From Neelides folsomi (Eukaryota > Arthropoda > Collembola > Neelipleona > Neelidae), in assembly GCA_034687125.1 (NCBI GenBank), contig JAQGBZ010000038.1, positions 186,001 to 250,000 on the forward strand: 64,000 nt of DNA. The letters are read 5' to 3'. Under the pieces are notes generated by a model that had not been told where the DNA came from, did no database searches, and worked only from the letters and a program-made list of their open reading frames with translations. A program made the position numbers and the translations under genes. Positions 1,487 through 61,080 of this stretch are shown here, in pieces (positions within the stretch are counted from its first letter, which is position 1; every line of letters starts with the position of its first letter).

Positions 1487-1608
1487 AATCATGGAAGCGC
1501 TTTTATTGAAGACCACGGGTATTTGGTTGGTAGTGAAAGTGAAAGTTCCCTTCCATTGAAATTGGAAAAAAGGAGCAAGCTAAAGGAGATTAAAGAAAGG
1601 CTGCAAGA
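1487..1608 (+). promoter_or_regulatory. Probable 5' leader part of exon 1, with a short upstream ORF
   Basis: A good 3' splice site (pyrimidine-rich tract ending ttcag) lies just before 1487, so the coding exon probably begins here with about 122 nt of leader. The leader contains an ATG at 1491 that opens a 22-codon frame ending in TGA at 1557-1559, before the main ATG at 1609. A different frame stays open across the leader but ends in a TGA overlapping the main ATG. Human SLC7A14 has about the same N-terminal length as the model starting at 1609, which argues against an upstream start. Confidence 0.4.
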
Positions 1609-4600
1609 ATGAAATTCAAGCTCGCCGAATATCTTCCATCGAACAGAGAAGGCTTAAAGCAAGAAGCTCTCATTCTTTTTAATAAATTGATTCGGACCAA
1701 GAACCCGGCTTCGTTACAAGAAGATCCTATCCACGAACGTCACGGTTCGCTTCAAGTGAGTTTTCCTTTATTTAACCATTTTCCAGTTATGTGGCTTGAA
1801 TTCTAATCTTAATCGTCCAATAGTTTTGAATTAGGAAAAAAAATACTATTTTTTATACTTCGAATTCTTACTAGGATAATAGAACACTTCAACACTAGTC
1901 GTAAATCATAACTTCACAACAATAGAAAAATATGCTATGATATTAGAATTACGATCCGAATCTAGAATAGCAATTTATTTCTGCTCCATAGCACAGTAGG
2001 AGTATTCCACTGATACAAAATAATACACTTTTTTGGTTTCTTATTATTACACATTGTATTCCTAAAAGCTCGCAATATTTAAAGGATCCGGATATACTAA
2101 GCTCGCAAATAATGTAATAATTTTTTAGTACACAATACAGATAGCTATGATGTAAGTATGTACAGATAGTTGTTTTACAATAACGTAATGTTATCAGTTA
2201 CATATCATAACATTCAATAACATAAAGATAAAATATGCAATATTGGTAGATGTCTATGAAATCCATCGTTTAATGTATGAATTTACATAGATTGACATTG
2301 CATAAGAGGTTCAAGAAGTGCAGTGACCTGTTTATAATGGAAAATAAAATGAAGATTAACTTAATAGGAAACGATCAATTGAATTCCATCATCTGCCACT
2401 CTTCAACTCAAGTTTGATGGTTTTGAAGAGCTTTTGCTTCTGACAATTCAATTCCTCTGTTAATTATTCCCCCACTTTAAATAATTGGTCCATTGTTGAA
2501 TTTATTCCATGAAAGAATTCACGAGTAGAAAACTTTTCTCAGAGTTTATAGTTTGAAGTCAGGAAAAAATGAGAAAGGCTGGATTCTTCCAGTTAATCAA
2601 AGTTATATACGTAAGGAAGCAGATGCTCATCGCGTCTTCTCCAGAAAAGAGGAATAAATGAGCCAATAACGTCAAAAGATCGATAAGGTTTGAATTGAGA
2701 TGAGAAAATTCCCAATTTTTTTGAATTTACGCATAAAGCGTCGAGATCAGTTGGTGAAAGTCGACTCACTCAGGTCTACTCGGGGCATTTTATTTGATCA
2801 AATCAGATTTTTATGGGAAGAAGGAGGCTATAAATTTTCTCTTTATATTGACATTATAAAAGAAGTGAGAATGTAATAATCTCAAATACTCCATCGATCG
2901 TTTTTGAATTTAAATGAAGAGTAAACTTTTATTTTTGTCAGTTTACATTTTATACAGAGGTATTATTCTGTTCTTTTGGAGGTATTCTTATTCATGTCCA
3001 TATTTTCTGGCTAGTGTGGCTAGGAAAAGTCTACTTACTTATTTATAAAATATTTGTATTATTATTAAAAATACTTAAAATCTAATCAATTTTTTATTTT
3101 CAAAATAAACCAAATTGCATTCATTCATACCCCAAAAGAATAAATGAATCTTGAAAAAGATGAAATGTTAAATGAATAAAATACGTTAAATATTATATTT
3201 TTTACACTTATAAAATATGTATATTATAAAATTATAATAAAGAAAAAGTTGCTTTACCAATATAAATACACTACAGGTAGTCATTTAATTTATTGATATT
3301 GCTTCAAGTTTTAAGCATCTCGTTTTGCATTGTTTGCATAATTTATAAGACTTTGAAACTTAAACAAGTAGTTGAGTTAATCAATAAAATGTATTAGGTC
3401 TTATCAACTCATTACATGTATTTTATTCATTTCATTGGGATAGGTATACACATTTTAAGGATATAAGTAATTGCGTCCACACATTTTAAAAAAATTAAAC
3501 TGAAAATGGAAGTGAACAAAATATAACCATAATTCCAATTTTAAGAGAATTTAAGATGATAAAAAAATAAATGGAAGTGGTAAGCTGATCGACGTCCCAT
3601 TTATTCTCAGAAAAAAGAAAGTTATGAATATTGTCAAAAGTAGGGGAAATATTAAATTGGATAAAATTATCATCGTTTTTCACCCATTTTTTATCCGTAA
3701 CACAATTTCTGACATAACCCAACCTTGAAAATCTTGAAAATCTGTATAATATATTTATAAAAAGTTATTTCAACCGTTGTACATGTTTCTTGTCGCTTCT
3801 TATATAAAAAGTTTTCTAAAATTTATAAAAAAGATATTATTCATTTTAATATTACAATAGAGACATCAAATGTCATGTATTCTAATTCTAACAATTCTAC
3901 CTATTTGTACTTACAAAATAAAAGAATATATGATGGCATTAAGACCTATGAGCAGTTGATGTTTTATTATTATTAAACGATGTTCTTAGCATTGATGTTA
4001 CTGACACTAATTTCTCCGTTAAAAACCTCTGCCCATCTATATTTATAAAGTGCACCAAATTAATGTCTAGTTTTTATTATATTCTGTTTTGTTTTTACTA
4101 GAAATGCCTTACTACATTGGATTTAACATCTTTGGGAGTTGGAAGCTGCGTGGGAACCGGGATGTATTTGGTTTCGGGTCTTGTGGTAAGATTTTGTTAA
4201 TAACAATAACAAACGGTTAAACATTAAATTATCCTGCCCAAAGTAAATTTGAGCTAGCAGTGAACTTTGGTCGTAATGCTCAAGTAGTTCTGTTTATTAA
4301 TTGATATTTCATATTTATGAAAATAAAATAAAATGGCTTTAGGCGAAGACGAAAGCAGGTCCAGCAGTTATTTTCAGTTTCATCATTGCGGCATGTGCAT
4401 CGATTTTCTCTGGTAAGTTGGCGAAGGAAAGCCCTCGCTCACATTTTGCCATTTTATTAAAACCATGAATGAAACTCGTTGATGAAATTCATTCAGTTCC
4501 TCTTCTTTTCTTCTATTATTATACCAAATTGTAGTATTATGTACGAATATTCGAATATTTCCCCCCTTGACATTTTTATTGAATTCGAATATGCATTGTA

Positions 4601-7600
4601 TGTATTATATTTCTAAAAATATTTCCACAACTTAAATTAAACTGAGGGTAATTTAAATGTTTTAATAACTTGCTATTGTACAAAATATTAATTCTCAATA
4701 CGTTTCTCAATTTAGATCAAACCTTTAGTAAAAGTTAGGTAATGCAACCATTCTCAATGAAATTACTGTCAAAAATTATAGTTCAAATGAGTTCAGATGA
4801 CCTTACATTATAATAACTTCTAATAAGAAATAATAAATGATTCAACATGAAACTTTTGACAGTTCAATATCATTAAAACACCGACTACAGTTACAATATA
4901 CATATTATGTAATTTATCAAGACTTGTATCTAACCCACTTTGAAATATCTATTTACAGATAATAACACTCGTTGTAAGAGTAAATATTTGTAGTAAAAGA
5001 TAAAGTATTATATTTACATTCATAAATAGTTTGGATGCAATTTTGAGATTTCTGAACATTTGCCTTTAAACATTGAATATTACCAACATTTTCAATTTAA
5101 AGTTGTCATTTTAACTATGTATTACAGTTCAATGAATATAAACTCATTGAAAATTTCCTTCTAATTCTAACAACCCAGATATCTACCCTCGAAGACTCAT
5201 TAAGAGTAAAATGTAAATCGGACTTTAGCCTTTAGCCATATATTTTTCAGTTAATTTGGAGATTCTTCTCATTTTTTGTTAAAAACATGAAAATTCTTAC
5301 AATTTGTTTATTTGAAACACTATTTTGCAGAAATAAATTTTTAGTTTACTTTACAATTTTATCCTTTTTGATGCCATAAATTGTAAGAATTATGCTAATT
5401 GTACAGGGGCTTGCTATGCTGAGTTTGGAGTTCGAGTTCCACACACGACAGGGTCGGCTTATATGTACAGCTACGTGACTGTCGGAGAGTTTATAGGTCA
5501 ATCCCTAAACCATTATAAATACTTATAGCAACACCGTCTATACTTGTTCATTATTTCATCCTGGTCCTCATGTGGGAAAGTGTTCAATAATTTTAAAACG
5601 ATGTTATGATGAAGTGAGATGATAAGGGATAATAACCTCTCTCTTCTTTAGCCTTTGTCATTGGATGGAACATGGTGCTCGAGTATTTAATAGGAACATC
5701 AGCATGTGCGTGTGCCCTCAGTGCTTGTTTTGATGCCATAAGCAGTGGAGCGATCACAACGAAACTCTCAGACACAATTGGAACTTTTCACGGTTAGTTA
5801 TTTTAGTAATATTCAACGACACTTAATTTTAATTGGATTATGTCATCCTTCTCAACTACCAGAAATTATTTAATAAACTTTAACTTTGAATATTTAATAT
5901 TTTATTTTCACTAATGCTCTTCCTCTCTTTCTCTACTTTCACTAACAGAGAAAGCATGTTGTATTAAATATTAAATTTAGCTCCATCATTGTCAGTTTAC
6001 CACTTATAAGATAAAAGAAACAAAGCTAATATGTCAACCGTTATGTAAACACATAAAGTGGTTTTGTTTTTCATTTCAAATCAACGATTCTTTGTATTTG
6101 CTTGAGTAATTAATTACAAAGAAATGAAAGTAAATTAATTCACCACTGTGAAGTTCATTCGGCCGTGAGCCCCATTTGATCTCACTTCCCCTCATTTAAA
6201 ATGAAAATGGTTAATGAGTTAATGAAGAGTGAAAAGGTTTTTTTTCTGGAACCAGGTCGACCTCCGGATGTGCTCGCATTCGGAATAACTCTCCTCATGA
6301 TGGTCGTTCTCATCGCAGGAGTTCAGAAGTCGCTTCTTTTCAATAATGTGCTAAACGCAATCAACTTTGCCACATGGGTCTTTGTGATGACGGCAGGGCT
6401 TTTCTACGTAGATTTCTCAAATTGGACCGACTATGGCGGCTTCCTTCCTTTCGGCTGGTCAGGGGTAGGAGCTCTTTTGATCTTTAGCTTTTACATAAAA
6501 GTATACTTATTTTGACTACACAAGAGAGTTAAACTAAATTATGTACGGCTGATTTTTTTTATTTAATATTTAAATAGGTCTTGACCGGAGCAGCAACGTG
6601 TTTCTACGCCTTCATTGGATTCGACATCATTGCAACAACTGGAGAAGAGGCCAAAGATCCAAAAAAGTCAATTCCCTTGGCCATTGCTTCAAGTCTTGTT
6701 ATTATTCTCGTGGCGTACGTCACGTCTTCAATGATGCTCACACTCGTTGGTACGACACATATTCTGCCCCACATATCTATTCTCAATTCCCATGATAAAT
6801 ATATCAAAAAACCCACCACAAAAAGGTTTTATCTCCTACAATTGATTAATTGTCACTATTTTTCAAGTCCTACAATAATTGATTAATATTTATTTTGATA
6901 TACTATGTAATACAATACATCGCGGAGCTAAACTGATGAAAAAATAGGACGTTTTAATTAATTTTAATTAAATTTAGTTCCCTACGATGAAGTGGTGGAA
7001 AAGTCAGCTCTTGTCGAGATGTTTGGTCAAGTCGGGGCGACTAAATGCCAATTTATTGTGGCCATTGGTGCTTTGGCTGGCCTCACCGTCTCCATGTTTG
7101 GATCGATGTTTCCCATGCCGCGGATCGTGTACGCCATGGCAAAGGACGGCCTTATTTTTCAGTAAGAATACTTAAATCTTGAAAAGAAAGAGAAGATGAA
7201 AGAGGAGAAAGTCTCGGAGAAACCTCAATTACTTCCCCCTTAACTTTCTTTCATGAGGGACAGATTAAAGAAAGACATTTTTGTCAACTCAGGTGGCTGT
7301 CAGAAGTTTGGAACGTAACTGGAACACCTGCTGTTGCGACGTTGTGTTTAGGATCCTTGGCGGCTCTTTCATCACTCGTTATCCAACTTGAAGTCCTCGT
7401 CGAAATGATGTCTATAGGTAAGTACTTTACTCAAACCAAAACATAATTTAAAAACTTTTCCTTATGGGATAAAAGGAAACGCTATCAGGTCCCAAATACA
7501 CGTTTAATTACATCTCATATATTGATAAAGTATTAAAGGTCTTTTAGCTTGATCCCCTATAATTTCTTTAATAAAACACATGATTTCTTATTACATGACC

Positions 7601-51313: not shown

Positions 51314-53773
51314 TCATTGGTCTACATTTTTACAGTAATTTTCGCTAGAGTTATAGCAGACGGCGCATCTTGATACTTTTGAACTCATCTTTGTTCCTAC
51401 TAGAATAGCATTCCGTGGTTTTATAAATTGATCGTCTTGATGTGTGACTGTTAACCAAAACGCGAGGTTGTATTCAGAGTATGAACAAGTTCCTTCAATT
51501 CCGTCACATCTTAAACATTTTAAAAAATCAAAATTTAATTAAACATTCAATATTAATACCAAATATACTGCCCAATAAGTCCATTCATTTGAGTGTTAAA
51601 GTGAAAAACATGATTTTTTGGAAATCATTAGTTTATTCACGTATTATGTAATCTCTATTTAGTCGAATACATTCTTCCCATTTCCATTTAAGTTCCCTGA
51701 TCCCCCTTTTACTTTATTAAATGCGTCTTAAAGATAAACTAATTATAAAATTATCGTATCTCATCATTTAGCATTTTCATATACAATATACATAGATGAA
51801 TGGACTTTTTGGGCAGTATATTAATATTATATGGAAATTTTAATAGTATTTATTATAGAGTATAAATATAATGAAATTCTTAAATAAGTTGGATACATAA
51901 CTTTAAAATCTTACTCGACAAACGGATTTTTGTGAAATTCTCTTAAGCAAGAGCCAGGAGATCCCAACGACTGTCCTCCACCTCTTCCACCATCTCCAGC
52001 ATACTGTGAAAATAACCATGTATTTGAGAAAACATAAACAAAGACCGAGTTGTTAGATGAGAGCTGCCTCAAATCTCAGTCACATCAAAAGTTCAAACTC
52101 AAACTTATTTTTGACATCGCATGCCTGATAGGTAAGAATTACGTTGATGCTTAAATGAGTGTAAACGAACCATTGCAAAACTGAATCCATTCCACATGAG
52201 GTCCCAACCGTCGGGACACTTTGGATGTTTAATGTTTTGGCTGTGAATTGTCAGGACTTTAGATGGAACTTGACAAACAGAACATCTAATTCAAGAGATT
52301 TTAAAAAGTTATTTAACTTGTAATTGCCCAAGATGAATGGTTTTAATTTATGAACCTTGAAATTTGGTTGATCGTGGTATCTCCTGGATCGCTGGTGGAA
52401 AGCCAAACAGAAGTGGCATTAGAAGCCGCATATCTGCAATTTTCCCTATCACAGGTGATGGTTGGCAAGTACGTGTACTTTTCAACACAGGACCCAGAAC
52501 CTCCGAGGTCTTGGTTATGAGTCTGAACATAATTCTCTTGTTTCTGCTCCATTGACAGGAGCGAATAGCCGCTCCATAACTTTTCTCCCAATGGGCATTC
52601 TGGAACTAGGGTTGACTGACTGTGAATAACAACAATTTCTACACTCCCAGTTCCAACTGTTGAATTCCCTTCTGTTTCGAGGATGCAATTACCCTTTAAT
52701 AACAAAATTAAATTTTATTATGATTAAAACAGAAGTTATTTTAATAAATTACCGGGGGGCCAGCCCTCCCTGGAATTCCACTCAACCCTGGAAATCCTGG
52801 ATTACCGTCTCTCCCATTCAAACCTATGAGTATACAAGTATTACATTTTTATAAATAAGTAATACATATATTTTTACATAATACAGATAGTTAAATTTAC
52901 AAGTCAAATATAGACATTATCTGTAGTTTGTTTTGTTACATGTACAATAACTCTACCTGGAAGGCCCTCAAATCCAGGAAGTCCATCTAATCCTTTAAGC
53001 CCTGGAGGTCCCATATCTCCTTTAGGACCAGCGGGACCTGGTGGTCCAATTGGTCCATCTTGACCTCGATCTCCTCGTGGACCAGGGATTAATGTTTCAA
53101 CGACTTTCTCTTCTGAAAAATGTTAAAGAAATTAGGGCGGATCTTTTAGTTCTCAAAAAAATTTGCATGATTGATATCCTTCACTTCAACATAACTAATA
53201 GTTTACTTTAAAATGCTGTCCATTGGGCCTAAAATAGGATAGTGTTAATTAGAAAATGGATTGGCAAAATGTACCGGAAGACGCCTTCGATGAAGGATTG
53301 GAAGAAGATGTTGGATCCTCAAGGGATATCTTCATCGACTTTCCCTCTTGAGAATGCGGACATTTACAACCTGGTGACAGATGAGATTTATGTATTTATT
53401 ATACTTTTTTTTAAGTATTGTGGCGGAGAAAAGTTCGAGTCTGGAAAGGAAATGTCTTTTGTCAAGAGACATGAAGGGCGCCGCTTCCTTACCCAAATCT
53501 ATTTGTCGGAATTGAAGGAAGAGATAGACGAGTAAAATGAAGAAGATGATTTGAGAAATGGCGATAAGGGATATGAAGATCTTGAACGCCCGTGACATTC
53601 CCATCTGTGCCCCGCGTCCCTTCTCCGTCTGTGAAACATTCTTTTAAATATTTCCTCAAAAGACTCATTTGTCACATTGTCACCTGAAGAGGAACTACTT
53701 TGTTATTTTTGTCGACAAGTGGGAGAATTTCTTTTGGTGAGTTTCCAGATCCTCTCCTGTTTGCATTCTCCAT
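51314..53773 (-). CDS. Type II membrane short-chain collagen with collagen-IV NC1 domain, 8 exons
   Basis: Minus-strand exons: 53773-53684 (ATG), 53628-53493, 53112-52957, 52823-52753, 52693-52356, 52285-52171, 52003-51915, 51509-51314 (TGA); 1191 nt, 396 residues, phases consistent. Residues 1-45 are a polar, basic cytosolic tail; about 46-68 are hydrophobic ([20 protein letters not shown]), with no signal-peptide layout. Residues 86-151 are 22 uninterrupted Gly-X-Y triplets. About 153-390 is a complete NC1: two C4 repeats, each with the P-x-C-P, G-S-C, xC..xC and R-C-x-V-C cysteines ([53 protein letters not shown]). NC1 drives trimerisation in basement-membrane collagen IV. The very short helix resembles invertebrate spongin-like short-chain collagens; the membrane anchor is unexpected. 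An in-frame TAG above the ATG supports the start. Confidence 0.88.
51563..51821. mobile_element. MITE inside the last intron of the collagen gene
   Basis: Inverted 26-bp ends: atatactgcccaataagtcc at the left and its near-exact complement at the right, with one mismatch. TA-rich flanks fit a TA target site. It occupies most of the 405-bp intron 51510-51914 without touching the splice signals. Confidence 0.7.
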
Positions 53774-57842: not shown

Positions 57843-57953
57843 CTCTTGACATCCCGCGTTTTAGAACAGCATTTAGATTAACATATTTACAATCTATAGT
57901 AATTAAAGTTATGTCAATCTAAATGCTGTTCCTAAAACGCGGGATGTTAAGAG
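57843..57953. mobile_element. Fold-back hairpin, probable tiny MITE
   Basis: Arms of about 43 nt: ctcttgacatcccgcgtttt at the left, complemented at 57911-57953 with two mismatches and a one-base gap, and a 26-nt loop. No coding capacity. It could be a MITE or a structured transcript. Confidence 0.7.
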
Positions 57954-58135: not shown

Positions 58136-61080
58136 TTATACCGTGGTGTCTAAAGCCCTAACTCTGATATAGTCAATCTGAAGAGCTGAGCCATCGTCGT
58201 CCCAAGAAGGTTCCCAAAGATGTCTTTTCTCCCAAAAGTTTTTTGCTGCCTATAGAAAAATGCTGTTTAATTAAAGTAAAATAATGTGATAATAACCATT
58301 ATACATACTTATGGGTAAAATAGGTATAATAAATAACTATTATAGTACAATCGGTAACCCAAATACAGATTATGTATTTATTACACAAAAAGGTTCTTTT
58401 AATCTGTTTGAACCGTATAATCTTTTATAAAAATAACTAACAATAAGTATGTAACATGTAGGTAAGAAAGTATAATAGGTAGTCAATATTTTCGTACTTT
58501 TGGGTCATTGTTAGACCATGGCTTTGGATAAGGGCCAGTATAGACATCAGGGAAAAAACCGCTGTAAGATAAATTCTTGTAAGTTGAAGCGTTGGAGAAT
58601 TTATTTTGACATGTTTACCTTGTTCCTCCTACAAAAAAGTCGACTAGTTAATTAGTGATTAGTGTCGGATTATGAAGTTTATATTCGTATTATTTTTATC
58701 TTTTATCATTGTTAGAAAATTACCTGCAGCAAGACCAATAAGGAAGCTGAACTGCGAAATACAAATAATTTAATAAAATGCATTAGATTATAAAAAATAC
58801 ATTTAATTAATATTGCACATACTCGGTTTTGATTTCTGTCTATACATAAATATTATAATAACCTAAAATGCTTGAATCCCTTAATTTAATTATGTATTAC
58901 CTCTTGATCGAATGGTGCTACAGTTTTGTCTTTTGAATTCCACCAAGGGTTAGGATATGTACCGCTCTCTTCAACCCATTCCTCATATAAAGATGAATAA
59001 TTAGAGGGAGCATTTACAATAACTTCGTCATCAATCTTCACGATTATTTTTCCTTCAAAGTGTTTTAAAAATTAAACATTTTATATTAATTTTTAATAAC
59101 AATGTTTATTATTAAATTATCGTAAACTTTTCATTATAATATCCAGTCTGTACATATGTAATTTAAGAAAATAATTTAATATGTATAATCTCTCTTCATA
59201 TATCATAAGTATGGAATGGAATTTAAACCTGGAGTCCACTCTACAGTGTAAAGATGAAATTCCCGATCAAAGCCTTCATCTTGGAGTGTGTTCTTGCAGG
59301 AGAAAATAGCCTTTTCACGGAGCATTGTGCCGTATCGGATATCAGGACAATTACGCTCAGATCCAACGTTGAGCCCATTCATATTGAACAGCTTTCTGTT
59401 CCCACGAATATCAACGAGATGCATTTGGCCGGATAATAACCCACTTTTACCGTAAAAATAAGATTTTGGCTGGAGAGAAATCACTATTAAAAGAATAAAA
59501 ATTTTATCTTGGACTTTTATTTTATTTGTACTAACATTAAGTTTTTAAGTAGATAAATGTGAAAATAAATTAGAAGAATATTTTATATTATACTTGGTTC
59601 GAGCCAATCTCCACTAGGCATTTTAGCTGTAATAAATATTTTACTTACAATTAATTTGGAAAGGTATATGAAATGGAAAGTAGTAATTATGGAAAGTTAT
59701 AATTATTATTAATACCTTTAATTTCAACAATTCCATATTTAAAACTGAAAGATCTTTCAGTAGTGATCAAAGCTGACATAACCGGCTATTTAATAAAGAG
59801 TAAATATCATGCTTAAATTTACTTTATGTATTTATTTTTCAAAATACTTACATGGATAATATTATCTTCGTGACCTTAAAAAATAAAAACCAAATATCAT
59901 TGTAGTATTATTTAAAATGATATTTTAATATTTTTTAATATTTGACATAATAAAAACGTATAATTTTTACCGCTCTTCCAACAGAAATGGTTTGGAGTGG
60001 ACTTATCTACACTTTGGCACCTGTAAATTATATACTTACATATAGTTTAAAATAAAGGCATAAAACCAGCAATATGTTACTAATTGCATTAATACAAATA
60101 AACTTGGCAATTTAATTCAATTATTAGTAGAGTACAAAAAATCATTACTCTTTATTTGGAGTTACGCCGAAGAAAAGAGTTCCATTATAAATGAATTCTT
60201 CCCCATATTTATCAGAAGTGTAAGTTGCCTTTAAAAACAATTTTCCATCTCTTACAAAACTATTTGATCGGCTATTGACTGCAAAATGAAATTTCGATTC
60301 CTGCAAGTAGATAATTGCCCAAAATTCACTTTCGCTACCATTATGAAATTATTGTACTAAATGTATATAATGTAATTGTTTTAGGCTCTCATACAGAAAT
60401 TCCAATTGTGTGCTTCCAAGTGGTGTTTATAATATTCTCAGAAGAATCGAAATTAAAATTGTCAAATTCTTCATAGAAAATATGAGCCCCTGGTTGTACA
60501 TTTTTTCCATTGACTGTTGTCACAGATAGCTCGGGCGAGGAAGACAAGCTTGCTTCGTATATTGTCCTCGGTGTCGTACTAGAATATATTGTTGAACTTG
60601 TGGGTTCTAATTGAGTTTGTGCACTTTGGGCCGAATGTGAATTTTGACTTTCACCATTCTTTTCACTTCCTATGTAAAAGATATTTAATGTTAAAGCCGT
60701 TAAACGTAATTTAAGCAAATTATGTATACCATTATTTACGTAATATACTTAGAATAAAACTTTACCTTTAATTTCGCTTGGATTGGAATTATTGGAAAAT
60801 GCAAAAATGAGTGATACAATGAACAGAATTAGCAAAAGAAAAATCACCAGAACAAATAGTATCAAAATAATTTTTTTGAGCGCTGCTGAATTTGATGGCA
60901 AAACGTCAAATCTTGATTTTGTTGAAACAAGCCGGGAATCCTGACACATTAAAATTTATTTATAATTTTAAGACAAATTATTATTGTATTTGTACTAACG
61001 TGTGAAATGTTTGATAGTGATCCGCTTTCGGTGTCCATTAAAGCATAACTATCTGATGACGATTTTAAAATGCCCGTCAT
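58136..61080 (-). CDS. Membrane-anchored beta-1,3-glucan-binding-protein-like (GH16), 14 exons
   Basis: Minus-strand exons: 61080-61000 (ATG), 60940-60766, 60669-60395, 60300-60149, 60020-59971, 59874-59852, 59785-59716, 59626-59594, 59483-59229, 59052-58901, 58752-58725, 58628-58619, 58561-58498, 58249-58136 (TAA); 1482 nt, 493 residues, all phases agree. A cytosolic tail (1-48) precedes one span (about 51-75, IILILFVLVIFLLLILFIVS), then a Ser/Thr-rich stalk, then a GH16 domain from about residue 140: FYEEFDNFNF, TWKHTIGIS, SNSFVRDGKLFLKATYTSDK, AKMPSGDWLEP, EWTPG, GGTSGFFPD and QIDYIRVRAL. These match arthropod GNBP/LGBP. Where active GH16 enzymes have E-x-D-x-x-E, this reads GQMHLVDIRGN (Q306, H308, D311), so hydrolysis is unlikely. 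No N-terminal glucan-binding (CBM39) domain is seen. I infer a cell-surface glucan recognition role. Known GNBPs are secreted or lipid-anchored, so the type II anchor is unusual. Confidence 0.88.

What the first reader, a model, noticed from the sequence alone, without database searches (positions are those of the whole stretch)
51314..53773. Type II membrane mini-collagen with a full collagen-IV NC1 domain
Seen: eight phase-consistent exons give 396 residues: cytosolic tail, single hydrophobic span, 22 unbroken Gly-X-Y triplets and two C4 repeats with all twelve expected cysteines. Known: NC1 domains cap long collagen IV chains, and invertebrate spongin-like short-chain collagens pair a short helix with an NC1-like domain; as I recall that family was reported missing from well-studied ecdysozoans. 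Inference: a membrane-tethered NC1 trimer on an arthropod cell surface could act as an adhesion receptor or matrix nucleator, an architecture I do not know from the literature.
Basis: partly seen in the sequence, partly recalled or inferred. Interest (0 to 1): 0.82.

Follow-up and report, generated by a model that had tools for sequence, protein, structure and literature searches.

The report
Membrane-tethered collagen IV NC1 protein
An arthropod gene appears to encode a short collagen anchored in the cell membrane whose outer end is the trimer-forming head of basement-membrane collagen IV, but without most residues that head normally uses to link into a network, so it looks like a cell-surface protein rather than a matrix building block.

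Summary
On the minus strand, 53773-51314, eight GT-AG exons with consistent phases give 396 residues: an N-terminal tail, one strong hydrophobic span, 22 uninterrupted Gly-X-Y triplets and a complete tandem C4 (NC1) domain with all 12 canonical cysteines and both HSQ motifs. The NC1 is collagen IV type, 40-45% identical to five collagen IV NC1s, not spongin type, which is reported to lack HSQ. New here: residues that join two NC1 trimers head to head are gone (Arg76, Asp78, Arg179, the Met93 loop, Lys211), and an N-glycosylation sequon sits at Asn77 in the interface loop. Best reading: a type II membrane homotrimer, built like ectodysplasin or gliomedin, carrying a network-incompetent NC1 head as cell-surface ligand or adhesion module. 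The same assembly holds a full-length collagen IV gene and a second odd, apparently damaged NC1 gene (signal peptide, coiled coil, no collagen helix). Novelty: new variant of a known kind.

The parts
53684..53773 (-). exon 1: start codon and first 30 residues of the N-terminal (cytosolic) tail
   Evidence: model; in-frame stops upstream of the ATG
53493..53628 (-). exon 2: rest of tail, internal Met39/Met41, hydrophobic span (residues 47-68), donor GTAAGG phase 1
   Evidence: Kyte-Doolittle 2.68; the only ATG with a hydrophobic N-terminus and a phase-1 donor found between 53113 and 59000 with the thresholds
52957..53112 (-). exon 3: juxtamembrane [10 protein letters not shown] and 14 Gly-X-Y triplets, with RGD at residues 88-90
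   Evidence: Pfam Collagen 1.9e-9
52753..52823 (-). exon 4: 8 further Gly-X-Y triplets
52356..52693 (-). exon 5: Cys154, most of first C4 repeat, shortened Met93 loop, sequon at the Asn77 equivalent (residue 243)
   Evidence: Pfam C4 1.6e-22
52171..52285 (-). exon 6: end of first C4 repeat and start of second (second HSQ motif)
51915..52003 (-). exon 7: second C4 repeat, middle part
51314..51509 (-). exon 8: second C4 repeat, end, tail with Cys391, stop codon
51568..51816 (.). inverted-repeat element (21-base terminal repeats) inside intron 7; not part of the coding gene
   Evidence: 2 matches in opposite orientation, 0.00 expected in 100 shuffles

Best explanation
The gene encodes a type II membrane collagen with a collagen-IV-type NC1 head. 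Shown by sequence: a hydrophobic span without a plausible signal-peptidase site, 22 Gly-X-Y triplets, a complete NC1, and loss of most residues known to act in NC1 hexamer assembly. Inferred: the span acts as a signal anchor (N in, C out). Three NC1 domains fold and trimerise. The 22-triplet helix (about 19 nm) zips from the NC1 back towards the membrane, opposite to MACIT collagens, which nucleate at a coiled coil and fold from N to C. The head then stands off the cell as a trimeric ligand or adhesion module, not as a node of the basement-membrane network, because the head-to-head docking face is changed and probably glycosylated. Without a furin motif near the membrane it is likely to stay tethered.
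For: Gene model and phases. No other hydrophobic first exon with a phase-1 donor up to 59000 (one other hydrophobic ATG, at 57852, has no such donor). Exon 3's open frame has no Met ahead of its collagen repeat, so it needs an upstream exon. Signal-peptidase (-3,-1) candidates lie inside the span (after 53 and 55) or 14 residues beyond its end (after 82). NC1 matches solved collagen IV NC1s, best single chain E 2.9e-56, 12 of 12 cysteines. In alpha1 numbering the window reads 64T 66D 76S 78A 175E 179E 187Y 189L, 93 deleted, 211V; the full-length chain of the same genome keeps R76, D78, E175 and K211. Residue roles from passages of PMC6527180 and PMC13098435. No RX[KR]R motif. The juxtamembrane stretch shows no heptad signal (646 of 2000 shuffles reach it). 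The NC1 branch is long, 4.16 changes per column, which fits release from scaffold constraint.
Against: No transcript, protein or ortholog was available, so the exon 2 to exon 3 join rests on splice signals and phase; three donors elsewhere in the model are weak. Both Drosophila chains also differ at 64, 66, 187 and 189, and Vkg has N76 and H179, yet Drosophila NC1 forms hexamers with help from divalent cations, and an R76A mutant chain is still built into basement membranes (PMC10694668 passages), so loss of chloride residues does not prove loss of docking. The full-length chain C373 itself has Q179, T187 and T189, and its Met93 column reads T with a Met on either side. Ligand and partner are unknown. 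No structure or topology prediction was run.
Confidence: 0.6

Rival explanations
1. Membrane-tethered anchor or nucleator for the basement membrane: the NC1 head docks head to head on collagen IV NC1 trimers and ties cells to the network.
For: NC1 fold and E175 retained; a full-length collagen IV chain exists in the same genome; Drosophila hexamers include a chain (Vkg) without chloride switch or ring residues.
Against: Both sulfilimine partners lost, R76/D78/R179 lost, N-glycosylation sequon in the 74-78 interface loop.
Confidence: 0.15
2. Secreted short-chain collagen: the hydrophobic segment is a cleaved signal peptide, or an unseen signal-peptide exon replaces exons 1-2.
For: Internal Met39/Met41 would give a short n-region; one (-3,-1) match after residue 53; a paralog on contig C586 starts with an ordinary-looking signal peptide.
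Against: The span is 22 residues long and continues 15 residues past that site; no other hydrophobic phase-1 first exon up to 59000. A first exon further upstream, or split over exons, was not excluded.
Confidence: 0.12
3. An arthropod member of the spongin short-chain collagen family that acquired a membrane anchor.
For: Short helix plus NC1 is the family's architecture (PMC5395295 section 11).
Against: HSQ present twice and all 12 collagen IV cysteines present; spongins are reported without HSQ and without four of these cysteines. No spongin sequence could be fetched, so no tree with them was made.
Confidence: 0.06
4. Decaying collagen IV fragment without function.
For: Long branch; another NC1 locus of this genome, C586, carries an in-frame stop and a phase conflict.
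Against: All 396 codons open, all seven introns GT-AG, 22 of 22 triplets and 12 of 12 cysteines kept.
Confidence: 0.07

Closest known systems
Collagen IV alpha chains (NC1/C4 domain, PF01413)
   Same: Complete tandem C4 domain, 12 cysteines, both HSQ motifs, 40-45% identity
   Different: Only 22 triplets, a membrane span at the N-terminus, and most hexamer residues lost
Spongin short-chain collagens
   Same: Short collagen helix followed by an NC1-type domain
   Different: Spongins are reported without HSQ and with a different cysteine set; that section mentions no membrane span
MACIT collagens (XIII, XXIII, XXV, COL-99)
   Same: Type II membrane collagens with a short cytosolic tail
   Different: MACITs have several interrupted collagen domains, furin sites and coiled coils; here one uninterrupted helix, no RX[KR]R motif and a C-terminal collagen-IV NC1
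Ectodysplasin A, colmedins (gliomedin, UNC-122), class A scavenger receptors
   Same: Type II membrane proteins with one or two collagen domains and some other functional motif (PMC7848082 passages)
   Different: Their ectodomain motifs (TNF-like, olfactomedin; SRCR or lectin from recall) are unrelated to NC1 (recalled)

Membership tests
Collagen IV alpha chain | Tandem C4 NC1 domain with 12 cysteines and two HSQ motifs | tested here: met
Collagen IV alpha chain | Long interrupted triple helix (feature recalled) | tested here: not met
   22 uninterrupted triplets in the model
Collagen IV alpha chain | Chloride switch Arg76, Asp/Glu78, Glu175 | tested here: not met
   S, A, E; definition from PMC6527180 passages. 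Not universal: Drosophila alpha2 is reported to lack it
Collagen IV alpha chain | Sulfilimine pair Met93 and Lys211 | tested here: not met
   Loop shortened, no Met in it; Val at 211; residues from PMC13098435 passages
Spongin short-chain collagen | Short collagen helix joined to NC1-type domain | tested here: met
Spongin short-chain collagen | NC1 without HSQ motifs and lacking four collagen IV cysteines | tested here: not met
   Two HSQ and 12 cysteines; definition from PMC5395295 section 11
MACIT | Type II membrane topology | tested here: inconclusive
   Hydrophobic span with no good cleavage site; no topology predictor or experiment
MACIT | Several collagen domains with interruptions and furin site near the membrane | tested here: not met
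   One collagen domain; no RX[KR]R motif and the only RXXR, RGDR at 88, is inside the helix
Type II membrane collagen-like proteins (ectodysplasin/colmedin style) | Membrane span, short collagen domain, C-terminal functional domain | tested here: met
   met as an architecture of the sequence model only, topology itself unproved
Any of these | Trimeric, uncleaved, cell-surface protein | not testable with these tools
   Needs protein experiments

The most novel reading that the evidence does not exclude
A previously undescribed class of type II membrane collagen in which the collagen IV NC1 trimer has been released from network assembly and serves as a tethered cell-surface ligand or receptor head, one of several NC1 redeployments in this arthropod, since a second gene puts NC1 on a coiled-coil stalk without any collagen helix.
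Probability: 0.42. Interest if true: 0.68.

Novelty: new variant of a known kind. Interest (0 to 1): 0.52.

Why it matters
NC1 is best known as the network-forming node of collagen IV. A membrane-bound NC1 that has lost its hexamer residues would separate the trimer-forming role from the network-forming role and show that the domain can be reused as a cell-surface head, much as TNF-like and olfactomedin domains are. It also bears on the statement that short-chain NC1 collagens are missing from ecdysozoans.

Tried and rejected
Spongin membership: rejected on HSQ and cysteine content. MACIT membership: rejected on domain layout. Alternative signal-peptide first exon up to 59000: not found with the thresholds. 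Relatives in public contigs: none confirmed by tblastn in viral contigs (21 pattern matches) or prokaryote genome contigs (38 pattern matches); these collections are not animal collections, so this says nothing about animals. Species identification: a COX1 gene is on contig C742 but no named animal reference set was at hand. NC1 tree with 10 rows: placement of the window gene unresolved, 0 of 7 inner branches starred, and the program warns about the long window branch. Structure prediction was not called: the spliced protein is not read letter for letter from contiguous window DNA, and a lone exon 5 would be of little use. C698 (E 0.005, below cut-off) was set aside as a cysteine-rich protein unlike NC1 (by eye).

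Papers searched for the architecture: 20 of 20 listed; 2 of 2; 20 of 25; 0 found; 19 of 19; 2 of 2; 5 of 5; of these I saw titles and abstract starts. (20 of 45 listed) was on NC1 hexamers. Read as passages: PMC4678570, PMC6527180, PMC13098435, PMC10694668, PMC7848082, PMC5560861, PMC12549020; PMC5395295 as passages plus section 11. Aouacheria 2006 was not read, only seen as cited in PMC5395295.

Full report
What is there. The finding lies on the minus strand. Eight exons (53773-53684, 53628-53493, 53112-52957, 52823-52753, 52693-52356, 52285-52171, 52003-51915, 51509-51314), all seven introns GT-AG and the phases consistent, give 1191 nt and 396 residues. I set the boundaries by eye; three donors (gtgaca, gttcat, gttcgt) are weak. 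Two in-frame stops lie within the 60 bases before the ATG. Exon 3's open frame has no Met ahead of its collagen repeat, so an upstream exon is required. Between 53113 and 59000 the only ATG with a hydrophobic N-terminus and a phase-1 donor, at the thresholds used, is the membrane exon itself, scored from Met39 or Met41; one other hydrophobic ATG, at 57852, has no such donor. The gene could start at Met1 or at Met39; the span is included either way.

More than chance. Pfam matches on exon ORFs are C4 1.6e-22 and Collagen 1.9e-9, both over cut-off. A C4 search of the window's assembly gave 10 matches at E up to 10; 9 are over cut-off and lie at three loci: this gene, contig C373 and contig C586. 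The tenth, on C698, is below cut-off. The longest unspliced Gly-X-Y run in the window is 15 triplets (14 before the splice site), against at most 4 in 50 mononucleotide shuffles. After splicing, the run is 22.

Membrane span. Residues 47-65 average 2.68 on the Kyte-Doolittle scale, and the hydrophobic stretch runs from 47 to 68. R43 and K46 precede it; R71, D74, E76 and E77 follow, which favours N-inside orientation. Signal-peptidase (-3,-1) candidates, by a permissive rule of my own, occur after residues 53 and 55, inside the span, and after 82, 14 residues beyond it. I read this as an uncleaved signal anchor; no dedicated topology predictor was available.

NC1 type. The domain matches 13 distinct PDB sequences at E up to 0.001, all named as collagen IV chains or NC1 constructs. 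It is 40-45% identical to five NC1s: alpha1 (6mpx), alpha2 (1m3d), Drosophila Cg25C and Vkg, and the full-length chain on C373. All 12 cysteines are invariant across 5 aligned rows. Both HSQ motifs are present. Fidler et al. 2017 report that spongins share seven cysteines with collagen IV, lack four of its cysteines and have no HSQ motif (PMC5395295 section 11). So the domain is of collagen IV type although the short-helix layout is spongin-like.

Loss of network residues. Pedchenko et al. 2019 define the chloride switch as at least Arg76, Asp/Glu78 and Glu175, group 1 by Arg/Lys179, and group 2 by Phe/Tyr64, Asn66, Arg76 and Tyr/His189 (PMC6527180 passages). Counting along the alpha1 row, the window protein has S76, A78, E175, E179, T64, D66, Y187 and L189. 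The sulfilimine pair is Met93 and Hyl211 (PMC13098435 passages): the loop holding Met93 is nine residues shorter than in alpha1 and contains no Met, and position 211 is Val. Asn77 begins an N-A-T sequon (residue 243) in the 74-78 loop that coordinates chloride at the trimer-trimer interface. The full-length chain on C373 keeps R76, D78, E175 and K211; it has Q179, T187 and T189, and its Met93 column reads T with a Met on either side. Against a simple reading: both Drosophila chains differ from vertebrate chains at 64, 66, 187 and 189, Vkg lacks switch and ring residues, and Drosophila hexamers still form with divalent cations (PMC10694668 passages). Loss of docking is therefore likely, not shown.

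How it probably works. Shown: architecture and lost residues. Inferred: three chains meet through their NC1 domains, the helix (22 x 3 residues, about 19 nm at a recalled rise of 0.286 nm per residue) closes towards the membrane, and the NC1 trimer is displayed as a ligand or adhesion head. MACITs fold the other way, N to C, after pairing by coiled coils (PMC7848082 passages); here the juxtamembrane stretch shows no heptad signal (646 of 2000 shuffles reach it). Two extra cysteines, C154 right after the helix and C391 in the tail, could lock the trimer (inference). There is no RX[KR]R furin-type motif. An RGD sits in the first triplets (residues 88-90), but RGD inside a triple helix is usually hidden (recalled).

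Relatives in the same genome. C373 carries a long collagen IV gene: Gly-X-Y matches from about 43.9 to 49.3 kb and NC1 in one open frame. C586 carries, in phase up to the first NC1 exon, a signal-peptide-like exon, two exons with a heptad pattern (9 of 11 a/d positions hydrophobic, 0 of 2000 shuffles reach the score) and an NC1; no Gly-X-Y run of four or more was found in its 10 kb. Its NC1 has an in-frame TGA where relatives have Trp and a phase conflict at one splice junction, so it may be a pseudogene or contain sequence errors. The window gene and C586 share a phase-2 intron at ISR|C that C373 lacks, and C586 is the window's nearest row by identity, 47% over 211 columns; by path length in the tree the nearest is alpha2. 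The tree of 10 NC1s has no starred branch and the window branch is very long (4.16), so ancestry is unresolved.

Limits. The assembly is unnamed and seems incomplete: 12 of 14 expected proteasome loci and 6 of 9 expected chaperonin loci were seen (expected numbers recalled, loci counted by contig, exon-by-exon search that can miss genes). The absence of a second full-length collagen IV chain therefore means little. No animal sequence collection could be searched, so orthologs, and with them conservation of the anchor, are unknown. No expression data were available.

Literature. Seven searches of the held open-access library listed no paper whose title or abstract start describes a membrane-anchored NC1 collagen; most subscription papers are not in that library. 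Type II collagen-like proteins named in PMC7848082 (passages) are MACITs, ectodysplasin A, colmedins and class A scavenger receptors. Ministeria vibrans has a C4-C4 collagen (PMC5560861 passages), so the domain is older than animals.

Verdict. An intact gene model with an architecture I did not find described. It is best filed as a new variant: a collagen-IV-type NC1 on a type II membrane stalk, probably no longer able to build networks. Interest is moderate because membrane tethering and expression rest on one gene model.

Noticed in passing
L041 (G000:C586) about 1563-3276, + strand: Second unusual NC1 gene: signal-peptide-like exon, heptad coiled-coil exons and NC1 without any collagen helix; the NC1 has an in-frame TGA and a splice phase conflict, so it may be a pseudogene or contain sequence errors.
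   Followed up: partly
L043 (G000:C373:41000-50999), minus strand: Full-length collagen IV chain with NC1 in one exon and a 38-residue C-terminal extension after the last cysteine pair, with several prolines and acidic residues.
   Followed up: partly
window 51568-51816: Inverted-repeat element of about 250 bases with 21-base terminal repeats inside intron 7, probably a small DNA transposon; not counted genome-wide.
   Followed up: partly
window 59206-59544 and 60392-60748, minus strand: Open frames that look by eye like a beta-1,3-glucan-binding (GH16-like) protein upstream of the collagen gene; no Pfam match at E 0.01.
   Followed up: partly
window 6180-6512, + strand: Open frame that looks by eye like part of a cationic amino acid transporter; no Pfam match at E 0.01.
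   Followed up: partly
L051 1501-2841 (G000:C742:3610-4950, minus strand): Mitochondrial COX1, open under invertebrate mitochondrial code 5; could name the species if compared with barcodes.
   Followed up: no
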